A stretch of DNA of 40,811 nt, from the NCBI GenBank assembly GCA_021793575.1, contig JAJYSM010000027.1:1-40811 (forward strand). Reading direction: 5' to 3'. Below are positions 24,534-36,399 of the stretch, one piece after another. Numbering within the stretch: position 1 is the first letter of the stretch; each line of letters starts with the position of its first letter. This DNA is from Pseudomonadota bacterium (GTDB lineage: Bacteria > Pseudomonadota > Gammaproteobacteria > Xanthomonadales > Rhodanobacteraceae). A program made the position numbers and the translations under genes. Under the pieces are notes generated by a model. It saw nothing but the letters and a program-made list of their open reading frames with translations, was not told the origin of the DNA and made no database searches.

Positions 24534-24944
24534 GTGAATTTGAACGTGAGTACTAGTGACCTGGCCGGCCTGAAGGTCATGGTGATCGACGACTCCAAGA
24601 CGATTCGTCGCACGGCGGAGACCTTGCTCAAGAAGGAGGGCTGCGACGTGATGACGGCGGTCGATGGATTCGAGGCGCTGGCCAAGATCTCCGACCAGAA
24701 GCCGGCGATCATCTTCGTCGACATCATGATGCCGCGGCTGGACGGCTATCAAACCTGCGCGTTGATCAAGAACAACCCGCTGTTTCGCGCCACGCCGGTG
24801 ATCATGCTCAGCTCGAAGGACGGGCTGTTCGACAAGGCGCGCGGTCGCATCGTGGGTGCCGAACAGTATTTGACCAAACCATTCACCCGTGACGAACTGC
24901 TGGGTGCCATCCACCGCCACGTCAGCACGACACCCAGCCGCTGA
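24534..24944 (+). CDS. pilG: Twitching motility response regulator PilG
   Basis: Single-domain CheY-like response regulator that promotes pilus extension downstream of ChpA. The 136 residues have the acidic pair Asp19-Asp20, phospho-acceptor Asp63 in FVDIMMP, and Lys115 in YLTKPF. The N-terminal about 12 extra residues are typical of PilG compared with PilH. The start GTG at 24534 follows AGGGGGAG at 24523-24530; the spacing of three bases is tight, so the in-frame GTG at 24546 is an alternative. First gene of the Pil-Chp operon. Confidence 0.95.
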   Translation: MNLNVSTSDLAGLKVMVIDDSKTIRRTAETLLKKEGCDVMTAVDGFEALAKISDQKPAIIFVDIMMPRLDGYQTCALIKNNPLFRATPVIMLSSKDGLFDKARGRIVGAEQYLTKPFTRDELLGAIHRHVSTTPSR

Positions 24945-25874: not shown

Positions 25875-26007
25875 GCTCGGTCCGGTTCAAGGCAAATTAT
25901 TCAGAAGGGCCGGTGCCCGCAGTGGCCGGAAACTTGAGACAACAAGTACCAGGCTGGCATCCGCACCATGAGGCGGAGCCGGCAAGATTCGAACGGATGA
26001 GGTGAAC

Positions 26008-28038
26008 ATGAGCACTACCGGGGGCGTCAGCAGGGAACGGGGTTACACCGCACTCATTGTCCTGCTGCTGATTGCGATTGGCTTCGCGGCACTGGATTTT
26101 TTCCTGCTCAACCAGAAGAACGGTGAGGATCGCCAGGCGATCGCGCTGACCACGCAGATCCAGGTGCTCTCACAGCAGACCGCGAAATTCGCGTTGGAAT
26201 CTGCCAGCGGCAACGTGGAGTCCTTCAAGGAGCTTGAAGGCACCCGCAACGCGATCGATTCGGCGGTGCAGCGGCTGAAGAACGGCGATGCCGCCACTGG
26301 CATGCATGCTTACGCCAACAACAATACCACCCCCGCCGGCCAGGCCGTGAGCGCGCTCGGCGCCTCCTGGAAACAGCTCGACGCCGACATCAACAAGATC
26401 CTCTCCAACAAGGCGGTGGTGCTCGACTCCGGTCAGCGCGCCGCCACCCTGTCGCAGCAGATGCCGCTGCTGAATTCCAGCATGGATCAGGTGGTCACCA
26501 TCCTGCAGCAGCGCAACGGCAGTTCCGAGCAGATGCTGGGAACCTCCCGCCAGATGCTGTCGGCCGACCGCATCATCCGCCGCGTGCAGGAGGTACTGCA
26601 GGGCGGCGACAATGCGCAGCCGGCAGCCGATGGCCTGGCCCGTGACGCACAGCTTTACGGCAGCGTGCTCAAGGGCCTGATTGAGGGCAACACCGACAGC
26701 GGCGTAAAGCCGATCAACGATCCGAATGCGCGCAAGATCCTCACCGGCATGGACGACAGCTGGAGCAAGCTGACCGACCCGGTGGCCAAGCTGGTCGCCG
26801 CCGCCGGCAACATCGCCGACGTGAAGCACGCCGGCAACCAGGCCTCGCTGGATTCGCAGACCGTGCTGCTGCGCGCCAACGACCTCGCCGAGCAGATCGG
26901 CAAACTGCCGCTGCGGCGGCTGTTCCCGAATGTGTGGTGGGGTCTGTTCGGCGCGATCGGTGCGGTGGCGTTCTCGCTGCTGCTGGTGATCACCCTGGTC
27001 AGCGACCAGCGCCGCCGGTTCGCCAGCAGTACCGAGCTGAACCAGCGCAACCAGGAGGCGATCATGCGCCTGCTGGACGAAATGGGCTCGCTCGCCGAAG
27101 GTGACCTGACGGTCAAAACCACGGTGTCCGAGGACATCACCGGCGCGATCGCCGACTCGGTGAACTACGCCATCGACGAGCTGCGTTCACTGGTCACCAC
27201 GATCAACGAAACCTCCGAGCAGGTGTCGTCCTCGGCGCAGGAAACCCAGACCACCGCGCGCCACCTGGCCGACGCGGCCGAGCAGCAGGCGCAGCAGATC
27301 AGTTCGGCGACCTCGGCGATCAACCAGATCGTGAGTTCGATGGACATCGTGTCGAAGGATTCCGCCGAGTCGGCCGACGTGGCCGAACGCTCAGTGAAGA
27401 TCGCCTCGCACGGTGCCGAAGTGGTGCGCGAGACGATCTCGGGCATGGACTCGATCCGCGACCAGATCCAGGAAACCTCCAAACGCATCAAGCGGCTGGG
27501 CGAATCCTCGCAGGAGATCGGCTCGATCGTGGAACTGATCAACGACATCGCCGAGCAGACCAATATCCTGGCGCTCAACGCGGCCATCCAGGCGGCCTCG
27601 GCCGGTGAGGCCGGCCGTGGCTTCGCGGTGGTGGCGGACGAAGTGCAGCGACTGGCGGAACGCTCGACCAGCGCCACCAAGCGCATCGAGACACTGGTGC
27701 AGACGATTCAGTCCGATACCAACGAGGCGGTCAATTCGATGGAGCAGACCACCGCCGAGGTGGTGGCCGGTGCGCGCCTGGCGGAGGACGCTGGCAGCGC
27801 GCTGGGCGACATCGAGCGCGTCTCGCACGATTTGTCCGCGCTGATTCAGAACATCTCCACCGCGGCGCGCGCGCAGTCCGCGGCGGCCACGGACGTTTCG
27901 GTATCGATGAACGCAATTCAGGAAATCACTTCGCAGACCTCGCAGGGTGCGAGCCAGACCGCCGACTCGATCGGTACGCTGGCTCAGCTGGCGAGCGACC
28001 TGCGGCGCTCGGTGGCGCATTTCAAGTTACCGGGTTGA
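26008..28038 (+). CDS. pilJ: Type IV pilus chemoreceptor PilJ
   Basis: Methyl-accepting-chemotaxis-like receptor of the Pil-Chp system, 676 residues. TM1 is about residues 14-34 ([15 protein letters not shown]), a helical periplasmic sensor of PilJ type follows, and TM2 is about 308-332. A HAMP domain then leads to the signalling coiled coil with hairpin tip near 514 ([20 protein letters not shown] ... [18 protein letters not shown]). AGGTG at 26000-26004 supports the ATG at 26008; GTG at 26002 is possible. The usual partner methyltransferase gene pilK does not follow. Confidence 0.95.
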
Positions 28039-28142
28039 GATCGGCCGATGTCGATATCAGTACGGTCCAGATCAGTATTTTGACGGGGGGCATTCTCGCT
28101 GGTTGCGTGATGCGTGCATGGTGCAACCGCTGAGAGAGGCGC

Positions 28143-31100
28143 ATGAGACTTCAAGACCACATCGATTTCACCACCCTGCAGTGGGTCAAGCCGGAGCTCG
28201 ACGAGACACTGTCGATCGCCCGCGAAGCGCTGGAGTCCTACGTCGACAATCCGGGCAAGCGCGACTACATGCGCACCTGCACGGATCACCTGCATCAGGT
28301 GCATGGCACCCTGCAGATGGTCGAGTTGTATGGCGCTGCGATGGTGACGGCAGAGATGGAGGCGCTCTCGCTTGCGCTGCTGCAAGGCAGCGTCACCTAC
28401 CGTGAGGAAGCCTATGCCACGCTGATGCGCGGCCTGATGCAGCTGCCCGATTACCTTGAGCGGCTGTCCAGCGGCCATCGCGATGTACCGGTGGTGCTGC
28501 TGCCGCTGCTGAACGACCTGCGCGCCAGTCGCGAACAACCGCCGTTGCCCGAGTCGGCGATGTTCCGCCCCAACCTCGACGCGTTCCTGCCGGAGCAGGC
28601 GCCTGCGGCGATGAACGAGTCGTACGCCGAGGCGCATCGCGGTGAGCTGCTTGATCTGCGTCTGCGTTTCCAGCAGCAACTGCTTGGCTGGTTTCGTGGG
28701 CAGAACCCCGCGCAGCAACTGATTGGCATGCGCAAGACGTTGCTGTCGATCACAGCACGCTGCTATCACGTGCACGGCCGCCGGTTGTGGTGGATTGCCG
28801 CCGGCGTGCTGGAGGGGCTGGAACAAGGCATGCTGAAGAGTCAGGCCGGTGAGGTGCGCCAGCTGATCGGCAAGGTCGATCGCAGCATCCGCCAGCTGAT
28901 CGAACACGGCGAAGACAGCTTGCGCGGCGACGCGGCGGGCGAGCTGGCGAGCAAGCTGCTCTACATCGTGGCGCAGGCCACGCAACGCAGTCCGCAGATG
29001 GAGCTGCTGTGCGAAACCTACGCGCTGGACAGTCTGCTGCCGAATGCCGGCGAACTGGAACATGCCCGTGGCTCGATGGCCGGGCACAACCGCGCGCTGC
29101 TCGATTCGGTCTCGCGGGCGCTGAAGGAGGATCTGTTGCGGGTGAAGGAAGCGCTCGATCTGTTCCTGCGCCAGCCGGATGGCGATCCGGCCCAGCTGGC
29201 GCCCCAGGGCGAAATGCTGGAGCGGGTCGGCGACACGTTGGGCATGCTGGCGCTGGCAGTGCCGCGTCGCGTGATCACCGAGCAGCGGCGGGTGCTGGAC
29301 GAGATCATCAACCGCATGCGCCCGGCTGACGAGGAGACCCTGCTCGACGTGGCCGGCGCGCTGCTGTATGTCGAGGCATCATTGGATGACCACATCGAAA
29401 GCCTTGGCTCCGAAGAGGAAGCCGGCGCCGGCAGCGCTGCCACCCAGGGGCTTCCGCGCAGCGAGGCGCTGGGAGTCGTCAGCGCGCTCATGCAGGAGGC
29501 GATCAGCAACACCGTGAAGGTAAAGGATGCGATCGTCGCGTTCGTCGAATCCGGCTGGGAGCACAGCCGCCTCACCGGTACGCCGACCCTGATGGAAGAA
29601 GTGGCCGGAGCCATGCGCATGATGTCTGCGCCGCGTCCGGGCGAACTGGCCGAGGGCGTGGGCCGATTCATCGGTCATGAACTTCTCGGCGACCGGCGCG
29701 TGCCCAGTGGTGCGCAGATGGATCACCTGGCCGACGCGATCGCCGCACTGGAGTATTACCTCGAAGCCGCCCGCGAGCATCGCGGTGGGCTGGAGCATAT
29801 CCTCGATGTCGCCGAGCACAGCCTCGGCCTGCTCGGCTACTGGCCGGTGCCGGCGGCGCGGGCGTTGCCGCTGCCGGTCGATGCCGAAGTGGTCGCCGAG
29901 GCGCTGCCAAGCGCAGCCGGCAACCTCCGGAACGAGCAGCATCCGGAGCTTTCAGAGTCGGTCAGCGTGCTTCCCGGTGATGATCTCGGACACCTGTTCA
30001 TCGGTCACAGCGAACCGCTGGCATCGCCGGTTCACAACCTCGACGGGCTGCGGCTGGCCGAGACCGAGGCGACCACGCCAGCCGTGCTGGATGGTGCCGC
30101 GATGGATCAGCACGACGACTGGATCGAAGTCGAGGAAGAGCAGTTCGAGCAGGTGCCGGTGCGCGACGCGCTGGCTGCCAACACTGCCTTCAATGCCAAC
30201 GCTGAAGGTATCGACGACGATATTCGCGAGATCTTCCTGGAAGAGATGCAGGAGGAAATCGACAATCTGCAAAGCGCAGAAAAAGTCTGGCTGGCCGACC
30301 CCGCTCAGACTTCCGCGCTGATCAGCATCCGTCGTTCGTTCCATACGCTGAAGGGCTCCGGGCGTCTGGTCGGTGCCGGCGTGCTGGGCGAGTTCTCGTG
30401 GAAAGTGGAGGACATGCTCAACCGCGTGCTGGACAACTCCATCGAGCCGCACGAGCAGATACAGGCGCTGGTGCACCATGCGATCGAGGCGCTGCCGCCT
30501 CTGCTGGCGGCGCTGAAAGGGGAGGGCCAGCCGAACACGCCACTGAGCGCCATCATGCAGGTTGCCGAACAGCTGGCAGCAGGTCGTCCGGCCAGGCTGG
30601 AAGATCACGCCGCGCCGGCCATGGAGACGGTCCGCCGGGTGGTACGCCGTCGCGTGCCGGCTCCGCTGAAAGCAGCCAGCGATGCCGTTCCGCAGGCCAC
30701 TCTGACCGATGCCCAGGCCGAGCCCGAGCACGCCGTCACCGAGACGCCGGTCGAGATGTTCGCCGGGCCGGTGCTGCCGCCGGTCGATCCGGTGCTGCTG
30801 GAAATCCTGCGCAGCGAGGTGGCGCAGTATCTGCAGACCATCCGTGCCACGATCCTGCGTGGCGGGCAGGAATTGCCGGTCAGCGAAGAGCTGCTGCGCG
30901 CCGTGCACACGCTGCATGGCGCCATCGCGATGGTCGACATTCCCATGCTGACCCAATTGCTGTCGCCGCTGGAAGGCATGTTCAAGCGGCTGCGCGCCTC
31001 CAATCTGTCGCTGTCGTCAGAGGGCGTCCGCCTGCTGGGCCAGTCCGCCGACGTGGTTGATCAGGTGATGACCCAGTTCGATGCGGCAGAGCCGCAACTG

Positions 31101-34100
31101 CCGCACGTGGAAGAGCTCACCGCGCAGATCATCGCGATGCGCGATCGCTATCCCGAGTCACAGGTCGCACATGTCGTGTACGAGCCACGTTTCGACGAAG
31201 CGCAAGCCGAGACGGCGACAACTGCAGCGGATCAGGCCGAGAGCGACGCTGCCGCCATGACCGCGTCGCTCGAGGCCAGCATCACCGAGGCCGCCGCGAG
31301 CGACACGTCGCGGGCAGAGGAACCGGCCGCGGCGGTCGATCCAGAGGCTGCGCATCACGCCGAGCTGGCCGCCGAACTGGTGGCGGCGCTGGGCGCCTTC
31401 GAGCCTGAGGTGGCCGCCGCCGAACGCGCGGCGGCCGAGCAGGTCGCCGCTGAAACGGCGGCGGTCGAAAAACGGGCTGCCGAGCAGATGCTCGCCGAGC
31501 AGGCGGCGGAACACGCCGCCATCGAGCTTGCCATGGCCGAGCAGGCCGTCGCCGAGTTGGCAGCGACCGAGCAGCACGAGGCGGAACGAGTGGCCGAACA
31601 GGCGGCCAGCGAGCGTGCCCAGGCCGAACAGGCCGCAGAGAAATTGGCCGCCGAGCTGGCGGCGACCGAACAGGCTGCTGCCGAACAGGCTGCAGCGGAG
31701 CCGCGGGCGGCCATCCAGACCGAACCCGCGGCAGCGGTGGAGCCGGAGCCCAGCTTTGCGCTGGCTGGTACCGACCATATCGACGCCGACTTGCTGGAAG
31801 TATTCATCGACGAGGCGCGTGAGATTCTCGATCACGCCGACGACGCACTGGCGCAATGGCACGCCGAGCCAGCCGATCTGTCGCCGGTGGCCGAGCTGCA
31901 GCGCGATCTGCACACGCTCAAGGGCGGCGCGCGCATCGCCGGCCTGATGCCGGTGGGCGATCTGTCCCACGCGATCGAGACACTGCTCGAAAAGCCGATT
32001 CGCGATCCGGCCAAAACCGGGCCGCTGATCGCCGCGCTGGAGGCCAGCTTCGATCAGCTGCACGCACTGGTGCAGCAGGTATCGCAAGGCGTCACGGTCG
32101 ACTATCCGCAGGCCACCATCGATCGGCTGCTGGCGCTTGCCGGCGAGACCGCGTTGGCCGACGACGCCCTGCTGGCGGCGGTGGCGATGCCGGCGCCGAA
32201 GGAGGCCGTCAAGCCGGCCCCGATGGAGGCGCTGGCGGGAGCAGCAATGGCGGGCAAACTGCCTGAACTGCTGCCGGAGCTGGAAGAAGAGATTCATTCT
32301 TCGCAGGAACAGATCCGCGTTCGCGCCGACCTGCTGGACAGCCTGGTCAACCATGCCGGCGAAGTGGCGATCTACCGTTCGCGGCTGGAACAGCAGGTGG
32401 CTGGCTACCGCTTCAACCTGGTCGAGCTGGAACAGACCGTGGCGCGCCTGCGCAGCCAGCTGCGCATGCTGGAAATCGAGACCGAGGCGCAGATCATCGC
32501 GCGCTTCCAGCGCGAACATCGTGAGGCTGGTCTGGCCGCGTTCGATCCGCTCGAACTCGATCGCTACTCCCAATTGCAGCAGTATTCCCGCGCGCTGGCC
32601 GAATCGGTATCCGATCTGGTGTCGATCCAGAACATGCTGGACGAACTCACCCGCCAGGCCGAGACCCTGCTGATCCAGCAGTCACGCGTCAGCACCGAGC
32701 TGCAGGACGGCCTGTTGCGCACGCGCATGCTGCCATTCGACACGATGGTGCCCAACCTGCGTCGCACCCTGCGCCAGGCAGCACAGGATCAGGGCAAAAG
32801 CGCGCAGCTATACGTCGCTGGTGCGCACGGCGAAATGGATCGCAACCTGCTCGATCGCATCAAGGCGCCATTCGAGCACATGCTGCGCAACGCTATCGCG
32901 CACGGCATCGAGACCCCGGCCGAACGCCGCAAGGCTGGCAAGCCGGCCGAAGGTGCGGTGCATATTCGGGTCGCGCGCGAGGCGACCGAGGTGGTGATCC
33001 GTGTCAGCGACGACGGCCGCGGGCTGGATCGCGAGGCGATCCGCAAACGCGGCATCGAACGCGGGCTGTTGCGTGCCGACATCAAACCCACCGACAACCA
33101 GCTGCTTTCGCTGATCACCCAGCCGGGTTTCTCCACCGCAGCAACGATCACCCAACTGGCCGGGCGCGGCGTGGGCATGGACGTGGTTGCCAACGAGATC
33201 AAGCAGCTTGGTGGTTCGTTGTCGATCGAATCCGAACAGGGCAAGGGCAGCGTGTTTGTGCTGCGGCTGCCGTTCACGCTGGCGGTGACGCAGGCCATCC
33301 TGGTACGCATCGGCGAAGCCACGTTCGCCATTCCGATGACCTCGGTGCAGGGCGTGGCGCGGGTCAATCCGGACGACCTGGCCGCCTGGCTGGCCGAGCC
33401 GGAGCCGATCTTCGAGTACGGCAACGAGCCTTACGGCATTCACGATCTGGCCGAACTGCTGGGTCTGCCGCCCGGCCTGCCGGACGAGAACGAGCAGCAG
33501 CCGCTGCTGCTGACTCGCGCCGGCGACCTGCGCGCAGCCATTCGCATCGATGCGGTGCTGGGCTCGCGCGAGATCGTGGTCAAGTCAGTAGGTCCGCAGA
33601 TCAGTTCGGTGCCGGGCCTGCTTGGCGCCACCATCATGGGTGATGGTTCGGTGCTGATCATTCTCGATCTGGCCCCGCTGGTGCGCCATGGCATCACCCG
33701 CCGCCAGCAGCGTCTGGCCGATGGCCTCAGTGCGGTGCAGGCGCCGGTCATTGACGAAGTGCGGGTGCGGCCGCTGGTGATGGTGGTGGACGATTCGATC
33801 ACCATGCGCAAGGTCACCAGCCGCGTGCTGGAACGTCATGAATACGAAGTCAGCACGGCCAAGGACGGTGTCGATGCGGTGGAGAAACTGCACGAGCGCG
33901 TGCCGGATCTGATGCTGCTGGATATCGAGATGCCACGCATGGACGGCTACGAGCTGGCCACCCACATGAAGGCAGACCCGCGATTGCGCGATGTGCCGAT
34001 CATCATGATCACCTCGCGCAGCGGCGACAAGCATCGCCAGCGCGCGTTCGATATCGGCGTCGATCGTTATCTCGGCAAGCCCTATCAGGAGGCCGAATTG

Positions 34101-34151
34101 CTGGTGCAGATCAGCGAGGTGCTGGAGCAGCGCGCCGGAGCCGCATCATGA
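28143..34151 (+). CDS. chpA: Pil-Chp hybrid histidine kinase ChpA (PilL)
   Basis: Very large CheA-type kinase, 2002 residues, that phosphorylates PilG and PilH. Reading from the N terminus: a FimL-like region with Hpt-like His54 (QVHGTLQMVE), Hpt domains with His734 (HTLKGSG), His922 (HTLHGAI) and His1257 (HTLKGGA), an Ala/Glu-rich helical spacer of about 130 residues before the last Hpt (1070-1202), a dimerisation helix, HATPase with HMLRNAIAHGIE near 1579 and GRGVGMDVV, a CheW-like domain (about 1716-1860), and a C-terminal receiver with phospho-acceptor Asp1927 (LLDIEMP). The number of Hpt domains is typical of ChpA. The stop overlaps the chpB ATG. Confidence 0.96.
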   Translation: MRLQDHIDFTTLQWVKPELDETLSIAREALESYVDNPGKRDYMRTCTDHLHQVHGTLQMVELYGAAMVTAEMEALSLALLQGSVTYREEAYATLMRGLMQLPDYLERLSSGHRDVPVVLLPLLNDLRASREQPPLPESAMFRPNLDAFLPEQAPAAMNESYAEAHRGELLDLRLRFQQQLLGWFRGQNPAQQLIGMRKTLLSITARCYHVHGRRLWWIAAGVLEGLEQGMLKSQAGEVRQLIGKVDRSIRQLIEHGEDSLRGDAAGELASKLLYIVAQATQRSPQMELLCETYALDSLLPNAGELEHARGSMAGHNRALLDSVSRALKEDLLRVKEALDLFLRQPDGDPAQLAPQGEMLERVGDTLGMLALAVPRRVITEQRRVLDEIINRMRPADEETLLDVAGALLYVEASLDDHIESLGSEEEAGAGSAATQGLPRSEALGVVSALMQEAISNTVKVKDAIVAFVESGWEHSRLTGTPTLMEEVAGAMRMMSAPRPGELAEGVGRFIGHELLGDRRVPSGAQMDHLADAIAALEYYLEAAREHRGGLEHILDVAEHSLGLLGYWPVPAARALPLPVDAEVVAEALPSAAGNLRNEQHPELSESVSVLPGDDLGHLFIGHSEPLASPVHNLDGLRLAETEATTPAVLDGAAMDQHDDWIEVEEEQFEQVPVRDALAANTAFNANAEGIDDDIREIFLEEMQEEIDNLQSAEKVWLADPAQTSALISIRRSFHTLKGSGRLVGAGVLGEFSWKVEDMLNRVLDNSIEPHEQIQALVHHAIEALPPLLAALKGEGQPNTPLSAIMQVAEQLAAGRPARLEDHAAPAMETVRRVVRRRVPAPLKAASDAVPQATLTDAQAEPEHAVTETPVEMFAGPVLPPVDPVLLEILRSEVAQYLQTIRATILRGGQELPVSEELLRAVHTLHGAIAMVDIPMLTQLLSPLEGMFKRLRASNLSLSSEGVRLLGQSADVVDQVMTQFDAAEPQLPHVEELTAQIIAMRDRYPESQVAHVVYEPRFDEAQAETATTAADQAESDAAAMTASLEASITEAAASDTSRAEEPAAAVDPEAAHHAELAAELVAALGAFEPEVAAAERAAAEQVAAETAAVEKRAAEQMLAEQAAEHAAIELAMAEQAVAELAATEQHEAERVAEQAASERAQAEQAAEKLAAELAATEQAAAEQAAAEPRAAIQTEPAAAVEPEPSFALAGTDHIDADLLEVFIDEAREILDHADDALAQWHAEPADLSPVAELQRDLHTLKGGARIAGLMPVGDLSHAIETLLEKPIRDPAKTGPLIAALEASFDQLHALVQQVSQGVTVDYPQATIDRLLALAGETALADDALLAAVAMPAPKEAVKPAPMEALAGAAMAGKLPELLPELEEEIHSSQEQIRVRADLLDSLVNHAGEVAIYRSRLEQQVAGYRFNLVELEQTVARLRSQLRMLEIETEAQIIARFQREHREAGLAAFDPLELDRYSQLQQYSRALAESVSDLVSIQNMLDELTRQAETLLIQQSRVSTELQDGLLRTRMLPFDTMVPNLRRTLRQAAQDQGKSAQLYVAGAHGEMDRNLLDRIKAPFEHMLRNAIAHGIETPAERRKAGKPAEGAVHIRVAREATEVVIRVSDDGRGLDREAIRKRGIERGLLRADIKPTDNQLLSLITQPGFSTAATITQLAGRGVGMDVVANEIKQLGGSLSIESEQGKGSVFVLRLPFTLAVTQAILVRIGEATFAIPMTSVQGVARVNPDDLAAWLAEPEPIFEYGNEPYGIHDLAELLGLPPGLPDENEQQPLLLTRAGDLRAAIRIDAVLGSREIVVKSVGPQISSVPGLLGATIMGDGSVLIILDLAPLVRHGITRRQQRLADGLSAVQAPVIDEVRVRPLVMVVDDSITMRKVTSRVLERHEYEVSTAKDGVDAVEKLHERVPDLMLLDIEMPRMDGYELATHMKADPRLRDVPIIMITSRSGDKHRQRAFDIGVDRYLGKPYQEAELLVQISEVLEQRAGAAS
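31353..31750 (+). other. Ala/Glu-rich helical spacer inside chpA
   Basis: The encoded residues, about 1071-1202 of ChpA, are built almost entirely from Ala, Glu, Gln and a few Arg and Lys. AEQAA, AAEQ and AERAA recur in loosely repeated units such as AAEQVAAETAAVEKRAAEQ. This would form a long charged helix, single or coiled, between the second and third intact Hpt domains. The DNA is correspondingly repetitive (GCCGAACAGG-like units). Confidence 0.75.
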
Positions 34152-35854
34152 CCCCAACCGGGCCGGCGGTTGCGCTGCTGTTTGACGATACCGAGTTGGG
34201 CGGCCAGTTGCGCGAGGCATTGCACGAACGCGGCGCGCGCATCGTGCACGAGGGCGGTGTGGCCAGCCTGAGCCGCGAGCTGCTGCAGCGTATCGGCGTT
34301 GAGGTGCTGGTGGTTAATCTGGACGACACCGCCGACGATGCGCTCGACCAGTTGTACGAGGTGATCGACGGCGACCATCCGCGCGTGGTGTTCAACGACG
34401 CCCAGGCTAGCCGCGCGTTGGCTGGCTGGGATCGCGCGCGCTGGGCAAGGCATCTGGCGGTCAAGGTGCTGTCCGCCGGCGACGTCGATCCGCCGCGGCC
34501 GCTGGCCGCACGTGACATCGAAACTCCGCCACCAGCCGTGGTCGCCGCACCCGCGCCAACCGATGACGCTGTAACGCCAGCGTCCGTAGTCGAGCCGCAC
34601 GCGTCCGTTTTCTTGGCTGAGGCGTCGGTGCCGCCACATGCGCCCGATCGGATCGATACTGCACACAGCGTGGCGGCAGTCGCCGAATCGGAAAACCTGG
34701 CGGCGGAACTCGAAGCGCTGCTCGCCGCCGGTGACGAGCCTGCCGAGGAGGCAGGTACCAGCAGCTCCGGCCTGCGTTTTGCCGATGGTGAGGAACCGCC
34801 ACCGCTGCATGACGGCAACTTCTTCGGCACGCCGCCGGTGGCGTCGGCTGCCGGGGATGCGGACGGCAGCGAGCCGCGGCTTCCGGCGGAAGCCCAGGCA
34901 GCGCCGCCACCCGCAGTACCGGCACCCCCGGTGTTCCACCTCGATCACCTGCAGTTGTCGCCGCTGAGCGACGCCAGCATGCCCACGTTGCCTGCCGCTG
35001 CTGCCGAGGCAAACGCAACCACGACCATCGCCGCGCTGGTGCGGGCACCCGACAATTGGGCGCTGCTCGACGACAGCATGTCGCCGGTCGGTGTTTCGAT
35101 CGAGCAGCCGGCTGCCGCCGACTTCGGTATCAACAAACTGAGTGCCGCCGAGTTCCTGGCGCCGGATGTGGTACCGGTGGATCCCGCGATCGAGCCAGTG
35201 ATGAGCCTGCAGCTGATCTCGCGGGAAGAGGCGATTGCCCCGCAGGCCTATGAACACGTGAGCGAGATGCTGCTCGACGACACCGGCAGCGCGTTGAGCC
35301 GGCTGGTGCTGCTCGGCGCGGCGGCTGGCGGCGCCGCCTCGGTGGCGGCATTTCTTGCCGCGTTGCCGGCCACCTCGCGGCTGACCTTCGTGCTGCTGCA
35401 GCATCTGGTCGGGCAGTCGGCGCAGAACCTGGCGGAGCAGCTGGCCGGTCTGGGCACGCTGCCGGTGCGGGTGGCCACGCAGGGCGGCCGCGCCCGTGTC
35501 GGCGAGCTGCTGGTGGTGCCGGCCGGGCAGCAGGCCAGCGTGTATCGCGATGGCCGCATCGAACTGCGGGCTGCTGACTGCGAAGCAGCGCAGAGCCCGT
35601 CGATCGACGCCAGCTTCAGCATTGCCGCCCATGTGTTCGGTCGTGACGCGCTGGCGATCGTGTTTGCCGGGCGCGCCACTGATGCAGTCGCCGGTGCGCA
35701 GGCGATCCACGATCGCGGCGGCCAGGTCTGGGTAGAGTCGTCGTCCGGTGAGCACTTTGCCGACATGGTGAGTGGCATCTTTGCCGAACGACTGGTGAGT
35801 TTTTCCGGTGCGCCACACGAGCTGGCGGCGCACCTGGTCGAGGTGTTTCCATGA
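34148..35854 (+). CDS. chpB: ChpB, CheB-type methylesterase homologue lacking the catalytic serine
   Basis: A 568-residue protein. The N-terminal about 110 residues look like a degenerate receiver (VALLFDDTELGGQLREALHE, VLVVNLDD). A long Ala/Pro-rich linker follows (about 115-380). The C-terminal domain is CheB-like. Its nucleophile motif GASTGG reads GAAAGG, with Ala392 where the serine should be. The other triad positions are kept: His419 (LLQHL) and Asp512 (GRATDAVAG), and the distances (27 and 93) are close to those of Salmonella CheB (26 and 96). The protein is probably inactive as an esterase, or uses another mechanism. It overlaps chpA and chpC by four bases each. Confidence 0.85.
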   Translation: MTPTGPAVALLFDDTELGGQLREALHERGARIVHEGGVASLSRELLQRIGVEVLVVNLDDTADDALDQLYEVIDGDHPRVVFNDAQASRALAGWDRARWARHLAVKVLSAGDVDPPRPLAARDIETPPPAVVAAPAPTDDAVTPASVVEPHASVFLAEASVPPHAPDRIDTAHSVAAVAESENLAAELEALLAAGDEPAEEAGTSSSGLRFADGEEPPPLHDGNFFGTPPVASAAGDADGSEPRLPAEAQAAPPPAVPAPPVFHLDHLQLSPLSDASMPTLPAAAAEANATTTIAALVRAPDNWALLDDSMSPVGVSIEQPAAADFGINKLSAAEFLAPDVVPVDPAIEPVMSLQLISREEAIAPQAYEHVSEMLLDDTGSALSRLVLLGAAAGGAASVAAFLAALPATSRLTFVLLQHLVGQSAQNLAEQLAGLGTLPVRVATQGGRARVGELLVVPAGQQASVYRDGRIELRAADCEAAQSPSIDASFSIAAHVFGRDALAIVFAGRATDAVAGAQAIHDRGGQVWVESSSGEHFADMVSGIFAERLVSFSGAPHELAAHLVEVFP

Positions 35855-36399
35855 GTGATGTTGATCTGCTGCCGCGTGAAATCCGCTGCGTGCTGGTGCC
35901 GGTAGGCAACCTGCGCCTGCTGTTGCCCAACGCCACCGTCGCCGAAGTGATCACCCAGGGCACACCCGAGCCAGTGCCGGATGCACCGCAGTGGTTGCTC
36001 GGCCGCATCGCCTGGCGTGGCTGGCGCGTGCCGCTGGTGTCGTTCACGCAGCTGGCCGGCGCCGAGGAGGGCGACGCCGCGCTGAGCGTGCGCGTGGCGG
36101 TGCTCAAGGCGCTCGGCGGCGATCCGAAGCTGCCGTTCATCGCCGTACTGACGCAGGGCTTCCCGCGTCTGGCCACGCTGAACGCCGAGCTGATCATCCC
36201 CACCCATGACGGCAGCGCGCTGCCTCCGGGCGTGCGCGCCCAGGTGCTGGTGCGCGACGACGTGGCGGTGATTCCCGATCTGGAGTGGATCGAGGCCGAG
36301 CTGCTCGGCCTGCTCGACGCCGCCGACGCGAGCGAGTCGGCGGCAGCGGTTGCCGTGAATGATGATGAGCCTGCCGAGTCGTCCGGCACGGACGACTGA
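35851..36399 (+). CDS. chpC: CheW-like protein ChpC
   Basis: Second CheW-like coupler of the Pil-Chp operon, 182 residues. The fold is visible in PVGNLRLLLPNATVAEVI, PVPDAPQWLLGRIAWRGWRVPLVSF and the final strand region QVLVRDDVAVIPDLEWIEAEL. The acidic C-terminal tail (DASESAAAVAVNDDEPAESSGTDD is split here only for description) follows the fold. The ATG overlaps the chpB stop. chpD and chpE, present in Pseudomonas, do not follow; the next gene is the convergent rsmE, 14 bases away. Confidence 0.9.
   Translation: MSDVDLLPREIRCVLVPVGNLRLLLPNATVAEVITQGTPEPVPDAPQWLLGRIAWRGWRVPLVSFTQLAGAEEGDAALSVRVAVLKALGGDPKLPFIAVLTQGFPRLATLNAELIIPTHDGSALPPGVRAQVLVRDDVAVIPDLEWIEAELLGLLDAADASESAAAVAVNDDEPAESSGTDD

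What the first reader, a model, noticed from the sequence alone, without database searches (positions are those of the whole stretch)
34148..35854. ChpB has lost the CheB catalytic serine while keeping histidine and aspartate
In the CheB-like domain the nucleophile motif GASTGG is GAAAGG, so Ser is Ala392. His419 and Asp512 and their spacing (27 and 93 residues) match the Salmonella triad (164, 190, 286). The window also lacks pilK, the CheR-type methyltransferase that follows pilJ in Pseudomonas. Loss of both halves of the methylation cycle, while the 568-residue protein is kept intact with a long linker, suggests a dead esterase that now works as a scaffold, dock or phosphate-sensing partner of ChpA and PilJ.
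Basis: partly seen in the sequence, partly recalled or inferred. Interest (0 to 1): 0.7.

Follow-up and report, generated by a model that had tools for sequence, protein, structure and literature searches.

The report
Dead methylesterase kept in pilus chemotaxis
In a large group of soil and plant bacteria, the enzyme that should reset the sensor of the twitching-pilus system has lost its catalytic residue, in lineages where its partner enzyme is gone, yet the protein is kept and shows new conserved residues, so it probably now works as a binding partner instead of an enzyme.

Summary
Confirmed. ChpB (34148-35854, 568 aa) has Ala392 where CheB has Ser164; His419 and Asp512 are kept. It is a clade trait: Ala in 116 of 121 close homologues, His and Asp in 121 of 121. 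pilK is absent: pilJ and chpA are 104 bp apart, and the genome's four CheR matches share contigs with its other four CheBs. Of 152 distinct ChpB domains, 21 of 22 beside pilK have Ser-His-Asp (the 22nd, L168, is frame-broken after an intact GASIGG); of 113 without pilK, 98 lack the serine. Inactivation arose at least twice: the window's family (Ser to Ala/Thr) and the Xanthomonas family (Ser to Gly, His/Asp mostly lost). Against a simple rule, 13 of the 113 keep the triad. Purifying selection and newly fixed residues argue for a kept non-catalytic role; the scaffold mechanism is inferred. By-product: PilJ residue 620 tracks pilK best of 389 columns scanned. No structure model was obtained.

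The parts
34148..35854 (+). chpB, 568 aa: receiver-like N-domain, Pro/Ala-rich linker, CheB-like domain
34148..34522 (+). Receiver-like N-domain (residues 1-125), probably not phosphorylatable: Asn57 (codon 34316-34318) at the likely Asp position
   Evidence: no Pfam hit at E 0.01; alignment to the CheB receiver below significance puts VVNL on TLDV; column; codon
35306..35836 (+). CheB_methylest domain (residues 387-563)
   Evidence: 94.9 bits; same place found
35321..35323 (+). Codon GCG of Ala392, at the position of the catalytic serine (CheB Ser164)
35402..35404 (+). Codon of His419 (CheB His190)
35681..35683 (+). Codon of Asp512 (CheB Asp286)
28039..28142 (+). 104-bp gap between pilJ and chpA, where a CheR gene lies in pilK-bearing operons; no room for it
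   Evidence: CheR gene between pilJ and chpA in 22 loci
26002..28038 (+). pilJ chemoreceptor, 678 aa; Thr620 (codon 27859-27861) where 18 of 22 pilK-bearing relatives have Glu/Asp, and Ala624 (27871-27873) where 22 of 22 have Gln
   Evidence: the scripts' column numbers 630 and 634 are 10 higher than these residue numbers
28143..34151 (+). chpA/pilL hybrid kinase, 2002 aa (four Hpt stretches, H-kinase_dim, HATPase, CheW, receiver), overlapping chpB by 4 bp
35851..36399 (+). chpC, CheW-like, overlapping chpB by 4 bp

Best explanation
ChpB here is a pseudo-methylesterase: a CheB-family protein that can no longer demethylate or deamidate PilJ by the usual serine mechanism, kept as a non-catalytic partner of the Pil-Chp array. 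Shown: the serine is replaced throughout the clade; pilK is gone; the gene is intact, overlaps chpA and chpC by 4 bp each, and is under purifying selection; some residues variable in triad-intact ChpBs are fixed. Inferred: pilK was lost first, the esterase had nothing to remove, catalysis decayed, and the domain survived because it still binds something in the array (PilJ, ChpA or PilG) and tunes signalling or polar localisation sterically.
For: Ala392 in 116 of 121 homologues against His and Asp in 121 of 121. PilK and an intact triad go together: 21 of 22 against 13 of 113 distinct domains. On a 97-row operon tree, 8 independent starred pairs differ in PilK: the triad (L168 counted as intact) goes the same way in 7.1 on average, the other way in 0.0, median p 0.016. 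A separate inactivation in Xanthomonas and relatives: Gly at the serine in 240 of 240 hits, the best 120 listed of 1763 (counted) and of 1345 (counted). Median dN/dS over 815 non-independent pairs: CheB domain 0.34, its last 89 residues 0.22, N-domain 0.25, linker 0.49. Fixed only in the dead clade: R467, D468, Q518, A519, D522, E547, L563; switched: S507A, Q530E; kept: H419, D487, D512 and nine more. In Xylella fastidiosa, deleting chpB significantly reduces twitching (PMC9956873, passages).
Against: I saw no binding, enzyme or localisation assay for this clade. A few members also lost His (L022, L106, L114), as mere decay would give. 13 of 113 distinct domains keep Ser-His-Asp without a local pilK. 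With rows of the order alone the pair test is not significant (5 pairs, 4.0 same, 0 other, median p 0.125; 4 pairs, 2.9 same, 0 other). Xylella's own ChpB was not found or examined, so the link to its phenotype rests on its family. A PilJ pair proposed as a methylation site elsewhere, here QE413/414, is kept in 78 of 78 rows of the dead group, which could mean that methylation goes on. dN/dS by Nei-Gojobori is rough at these distances, and the newly fixed residues may partly reflect that the dead clade is more alike (mean identity 0.54 in the diverse subset against 0.47).
Confidence: 0.68

Rival explanations
1. Decaying relic: ChpB has no function since pilK was lost and persists only because its gene overlaps chpA and chpC.
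For: Loss of the first G of the GG, P396 and M509, and scattered loss of His; dN/dS of the CheB domain 0.34 is not strict; chpB was not found in 10 surveyed operons without pilK.
Against: Stop-to-stop frames of 497 aa or more in 103 of 104 serine-less loci outside family f2; the exception, L190, lies at a contig end. dN/dS well under 1; new invariant residues; His and Asp in 121 of 121; Xylella chpB deletion reduces twitching (PMC9956873, passages).
Confidence: 0.17
2. Still an enzyme: Thr392, Ser398 or another residue acts as nucleophile, or the domain does another reaction with His419 and Asp512.
For: Thr at 392 in 26 of 99 rows; Ser398 in 67 of 99 rows, Ala in 20 of 21 triad-intact relatives beside pilK; His and Asp kept in all 99 by the group's definition and in 121 of 121.
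Against: 73 of 99 have Ala at 392. Position 398 lies six residues beyond the nucleophile and 31 of 99 have Ala there. G394, P396 and M509 around the site are lost and S507, Q530 are switched.
Confidence: 0.07
3. PilJ is still methylated, by one of the genome's other CheRs, and demethylated by one of its other CheBs; ChpB is dead because it is redundant.
For: The own genome has four CheR and four serine-bearing CheB; PilJ keeps QE413/414.
Against: Two same-genus genomes (G164, G242; 99% complete) give no CheR match yet keep serine-less ChpB (L199, L200). PilJ of the clade lacks the acidic residue 620, and in the window also Gln624.
Confidence: 0.15

Closest known systems
CheB methylesterase/deamidase (PDB 1A2O, 1CHD, 6YMZ)
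   Same: CheB domain by sequence, with the His and Asp of the triad and the PSID motif; a receiver-like domain in front (weak)
   Different: No nucleophilic serine; Asn at the likely receiver phosphosite; long linker; no cognate CheR
ChpB of Pseudomonas aeruginosa Pil-Chp
   Same: Part of Pil-Chp; its receiver is thought not to be phosphorylated (PMC12632253, passages)
   Different: The P. aeruginosa protein works with PilK on PilJ methylation (same passages); here there is no pilK and no serine. The P. aeruginosa sequence itself was not aligned here; eight other pilK-bearing operons of the class outside the order were (L167, L168, L170, L172, L175-L178)
ChpB of the Xanthomonas family (Xanthomonas, Stenotrophomonas)
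   Same: pilK absent from the operon in 20 loci, nucleophile lost, protein kept
   Different: Separate inactivation: Ser to Gly within an otherwise kept GxGG-type loop, and His and Asp mostly lost

Membership tests
CheB methylesterase family (Pfam PF01339), by homology | Match to the family profile over the whole domain, above the curated cut-off | tested here: met
   94.9 bits against cut-off 24, profile 1-174 of 174
CheB protein-glutamate methylesterase (enzyme) | Ser-His-Asp catalytic triad | tested here: not met
   Ala392 at CheB Ser164; His and Asp present
CheB protein-glutamate methylesterase (enzyme) | Esterase or deamidase activity on a chemoreceptor | not testable with these tools
   no assay
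CheB protein-glutamate methylesterase (enzyme) | Phosphorylatable receiver domain | tested here: inconclusive
   Asn57 at the aligned Asp, but the alignment of this domain is below significance
NCBIfam CheB subfamily models NF001965 and NF009206 | Score over the curated cut-off | tested here: not met
   86.6 against 293 and 83.8 against 342 bits; a triad-intact ChpB (L101) also fails, 128.3 and 129.9 bits
Pil-Chp ChpB | Gene between chpA and chpC in a pilJ-bearing operon | tested here: met
Pil-Chp methylation cycle as in P. aeruginosa | pilK methyltransferase in the operon | tested here: not met
   104-bp pilJ-chpA gap; the four CheRs share contigs with other CheBs

The most novel reading that the evidence does not exclude
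Type IV pilus chemosensing in this order has repeatedly become adaptation-free: pilK is lost first, PilJ loses a PilK-dependent acidic site (window PilJ residue 620), and ChpB turns into a non-catalytic regulator at least twice independently. Intermediates that keep Ser-His-Asp with no CheR match in the genome would be one-way deamidases, or caught in transition. Position 620, one helical turn before the usual C-helix site, would mark the PilK target patch of PilJ in this order; [quoted passage not shown]
Probability: 0.4. Interest if true: 0.75.

Novelty: new variant of a known kind. Interest (0 to 1): 0.6.

Why it matters
Database sources name a number of these proteins (putative) protein-glutamate methylesterase (rows), although the hits counted from Xanthomonas, Stenotrophomonas and relatives have Gly at the serine (240 of 240) and those of the window's family mostly Ala (116 of 121). 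If they act without catalysis, nature has separated the structural from the enzymatic role of a CheB protein, and the Xylella twitching phenotype of chpB would need a non-enzymatic explanation. The step series (pilK plus triad; no pilK, triad kept; no pilK, serine lost; chpB lost) makes the order of decay of receptor adaptation testable. [quoted passage not shown]

Tried and rejected
Rejected: Ser398 as replacement nucleophile (by alignment). Rejected: loss of serine peculiar to this strain. Rejected: loss of all PilJ methylation motifs; the pair that I equate with P. aeruginosa Q412/E413 by motif and spacing (not by aligning that protein) is kept in 78 of 78 rows of the dead group, so that pair is no evidence for loss of methylation. 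Not obtained: a structure model, and so no fold search.

Literature: searches gave no papers; in the listings (titles and starts of abstracts) of searches I saw no report of a serine-less ChpB or a pseudo-CheB; 40, 62, 81 and 82 list only part of their hits (20 of 56, 20 of 69, 20 of 22, 8 of 30). Passages only were seen of PMC12632253, PMC10896506, PMC9956873, PMC7056806 and PMC3927602. This covers only the held open-access library. Patino et al. 2025 (PMC12129077) is not held; Cursino et al. 2011 was seen only as a reference.

Method slips: the PilJ column numbers come from a stop-to-stop frame and are 10 higher than the 678-aa numbering used in this report (found and checked). The pattern matched no locus and that only 3 of 121; alignments replaced both. 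In one search seed rows L002 and L008 were read on the wrong strand and L004 was cut; L002, L004, L005 (a copy of the window) and L008 were taken out. In one search several best domains were wrong stretches and were redone. The group called dead_f2 holds 24 rows, of which four (L106, L108, L145, L187) are not of family f2. Dropped before counts: L139 (a CheR-CheB locus that is no ChpB), L001-L009 and L071-L083 (own-genome pieces and short same-genus loci), L144 and L180 (no ChpB seen, incomplete), L180 also from the tree; L205-L208 were fetched and not analysed. L104 and L027 count among the 13 triad-intact domains but were set as not intact in the order-only pair test (L104 only in the all-rows test and). 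Trees are quick ones with SH-aLRT only, and warns of long branches.
Full report
WHAT IS THERE. The window holds a Pil-Chp operon on the + strand: a receiver protein (24534-24944), pilJ (26002-28038), chpA/pilL (28143-34151), chpB (34148-35854) and chpC (35851-36399). ChpB has 568 residues; Pfam sees one domain at E 0.01, CheB_methylest, at 387-563 (94.9 bits). Aligned to solved CheB (1A2O, 1CHD, 6YMZ), Ala392 sits on residue 164 of 1A2O, the catalytic serine (its role is recalled), with no gap between residue 384 and the motif, and the QH and TD stretches hold His419 and Asp512. The serine-to-alanine claim is right.

IT IS A CLADE TRAIT. In 121 proteins (the window and the best 120 listed of 622 hits) residue 392 is Ala 116, Thr 2, Ser 2, Gly 1; His419 and Asp512 are 121 of 121; the first Gly of the GG is Ser in 72 and Asp in 33. 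Named contigs place relatives mostly in Rhodanobacter and Dyella, one in Frateuria (61 loci).

NO PILK. The pilJ-chpA gap is 104 bp. The genome has five CheB and four CheR matches; four CheBs share contigs C73, C22, C100 and C48 with the four CheRs, and ChpB on C13 is the only one without.

SURVEY. I fetched operons from the order and from the class. Of 178 loci and the window examined, 166 gave a ChpB, with 152 distinct CheB domains. With a CheR gene between pilJ and chpA (pilK): 22 domains, 21 Ser-His-Asp; the other, L168, is frame-broken just after an intact GASIGG. Without pilK, with pilJ in the stretch: 113 domains, of which 98 lack the serine, 13 read Ser-His-Asp and 2 (L108, L145) have a serine in the aligned place but lost the rest. 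Of the 13, L104 (GSSAEA) and L027 (GASVDG) have a degraded loop. For 17 domains pilJ was not in the stretch (12 without serine, 5 intact). In 10 further loci neither pilK nor chpB was found in the stretch: L141, L142, L148, L154, L166, L169, L171, L173, L174, L179. A serine-less ChpB beside a pilK was not seen in these 22. From the literature, the Ralstonia solanacearum cluster (pilG, H, I, J, chpA) is described as lacking chpB and chpC (PMC7056806, passage).

TWO INACTIVATIONS. In family f1 (the window's) most sampled genera have Ala or Thr at 392; the 99 rows with Ala or Thr plus His and Asp form the group compared. Genera g2 and g16 of f1 keep pilK and GASIGG (L101, L120, L111), and g4 and g12 keep a serine motif (GASIGG, CASIGG or GASVGG) without pilK (L102, L107, L110, L116, L117, L119, L198). 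In family f2, two genera (L121, L122) keep pilK and serine, and the other 20 loci have Gly at the serine with His and Asp mostly lost (L164 keeps both). L158 of f2 is identical to a Xanthomonas arboricola protein and L159 is 96% identical to a Xanthomonas protein. In 240 of 240 listed hits of those two searches the position is Gly: 120 (two of them read AGIDG) and 120; most that bear a name are Xanthomonas or Stenotrophomonas. The 41-row tree makes the f1 dead group one clade (97*), apart from the f2 rows, which sit with the pilK-bearing L121 and L122 (100*). The order seems to be: pilK lost, then the serine. Against a strict rule stand the domains with an intact triad and no local pilK; of their genomes G110, G214, G261, G265 and G281 are listed without a CheR match, and G030 and G066 are not among the matching genomes.

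STATISTICS. On a 97-row tree of PilJ plus ChpA, 8 independent starred pairs differ in PilK; the intact triad (L168 counted as intact) goes the same way in 7.1 on average and the other way in 0.0 (median p 0.016). Within the order alone there are 5 pairs: 4.0 same, 0 other, median p 0.125, not significant by itself. In the 41-row mixture tree there are 4 pairs: 2.9 same, 0 other.

SELECTION AND NEW CONSTRAINT. Median dN/dS over 815 non-independent pairs is 0.25 (N-domain), 0.49 (linker), 0.34 (CheB domain) and 0.22 (its last 89 residues); Nei-Gojobori values, so rough. Stop-to-stop frames are 497 aa or more in 103 of 104 serine-less loci outside f2; L190, at a contig end, is shorter. Comparing 29 diverse dead domains (of 85 distinct) with 29 triad-intact domains of the order: fixed only in the dead ones are R467, D468, Q518, A519, D522, E547 and L563; switched S507A and Q530E; lost I393, G394, P396, Q431, M509; kept in both H419, P458, I486, D487, F506, G508, D512, G516, G524, G525, L559, A560. 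The dead set is more alike (0.54 against 0.47), which favours fixed columns, but loss around the nucleophile with new fixation near Asp512 is what a changed function would give.

THE RECEIVER. The N-domain aligns to the CheB receiver only below significance, with VVNL over TLDV. In the 38-row alignment 30 rows have Asn there, two outgroup rows (L172, L177) Asp, L140 Ser, P0122 and P0179 Ala, and three cannot be read. The review says P. aeruginosa ChpB is not thought to be phosphorylated (PMC12632253, passage). A phosphate-sensing role is therefore unlikely.

THE RECEPTOR. Residue numbers here are those of the 678-aa PilJ; the scripts' numbers are 10 higher. If methylation stopped, PilJ should show it. 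The pair that by motif and spacing equals P. aeruginosa Q412/E413 (numbers from PMC10896506, passages) is QE413/414 in 78 of 78 of the dead f1 group, so it is kept for another reason or methylation goes on. But column 620 is Glu or Asp in 18 of 22 pilK-bearing and 2 of 123 pilK-less PilJs. Within the order it is Glu in 14 of 14 pilK-bearing rows and in 1 of 117 pilK-less rows (L154). Four pilK-bearing rows outside the order have no acid there (L167 Gly, L168 Gln, L175 Ala, L178 Asn), which speaks against a universal site. In a scan of 389 PilJ columns (residues 290-678) it ranks first for going with PilK across independent pairs (4.62 of 5). Over all rows the acid gives 6.0 same, 0.1 other (8 pairs, median p 0.031, range 0.016-0.22); within the order Glu gives 4.6 same, 0 other in 5 pairs (median p 0.0625), and 3.9 of 4. 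Several neighbouring columns also rank high (445, 633, 449, 613), so a patch may be involved. By alignment to a Thermotoga MCP (2CH7), 620 lies three to four residues before its EE pair at 623/624 (that this is the usual C-helix site is recalled). Gln624 is kept in 22 of 22 pilK-bearing rows and is Ala in the window. I read 620 as a PilK target or recognition residue; not shown.

FUNCTION. The only functional data I saw for this order: in Xylella fastidiosa, deletion of chpB significantly reduces twitching and does not change natural competence (PMC9956873, passages). Xylella belongs to the Xanthomonas family (recalled); its own ChpB was not examined here. In P. aeruginosa, ChpB sits denser at the leading pole and needs PilG for that (PMC12632253, passage). 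I infer that the kept function is binding in the array, by the CheB-like domain, without catalysis. Chance of dead catalysis about 0.93; of a kept non-catalytic role about 0.7.

LIMITS. Genomes of the genome search are unnamed, so family names are inferred from named hits. Absence of pilK or chpB beyond the own genome means absence from the fetched stretch, unless one search is cited. No experiment.

Noticed in passing
window 27859-27861 (PilJ residue 620) and PilJ of 145 grouped loci: PilJ column 620 is acidic in 18 of 22 pilK-bearing PilJs and 2 of 123 pilK-less ones; first of 389 columns for going with pilK.
   Followed up: partly
L107, L110, L116, L117, L198, L129, L130: ChpB with an intact Ser-His-Asp triad in genomes that gave no CheR match: an esterase apparently without any methyltransferase.
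   Followed up: partly
L124, L125, L129, L130: In family f12, without pilK in the operon but with the ChpB triad, PilJ 620 is Gln, the form that a CheB-type deamidase could convert to Glu.
   Followed up: no
window 27238-27243 (PilJ 413/414): The QE pair that seems equal to a site proposed in P. aeruginosa is kept in 78 of 78 PilJs of the serine-less f1 group, so it may serve structure more than methylation.
   Followed up: partly
L168 7785-8390 and upstream: chpB of a pilK-bearing operon is frame-broken just after GASIGG; may be an assembly error.
   Followed up: no
L027: Named contig of Rhodanobacter lindaniclasticus has GASVDG: serine at the nucleophile place inside the serine-less clade, but without the first G of the GG.
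   Followed up: no
L022: The window's nearest row in the tree (named contig Rhodanobacter sp. L36) has Thr at 392 and Arg in place of His419.
   Followed up: no
P0122-P0361 (mostly Xanthomonas and Stenotrophomonas where named): Some source names call these protein-glutamate methylesterase or even glutamate methyltransferase although the nucleophile position is Gly in all 240.
   Followed up: yes
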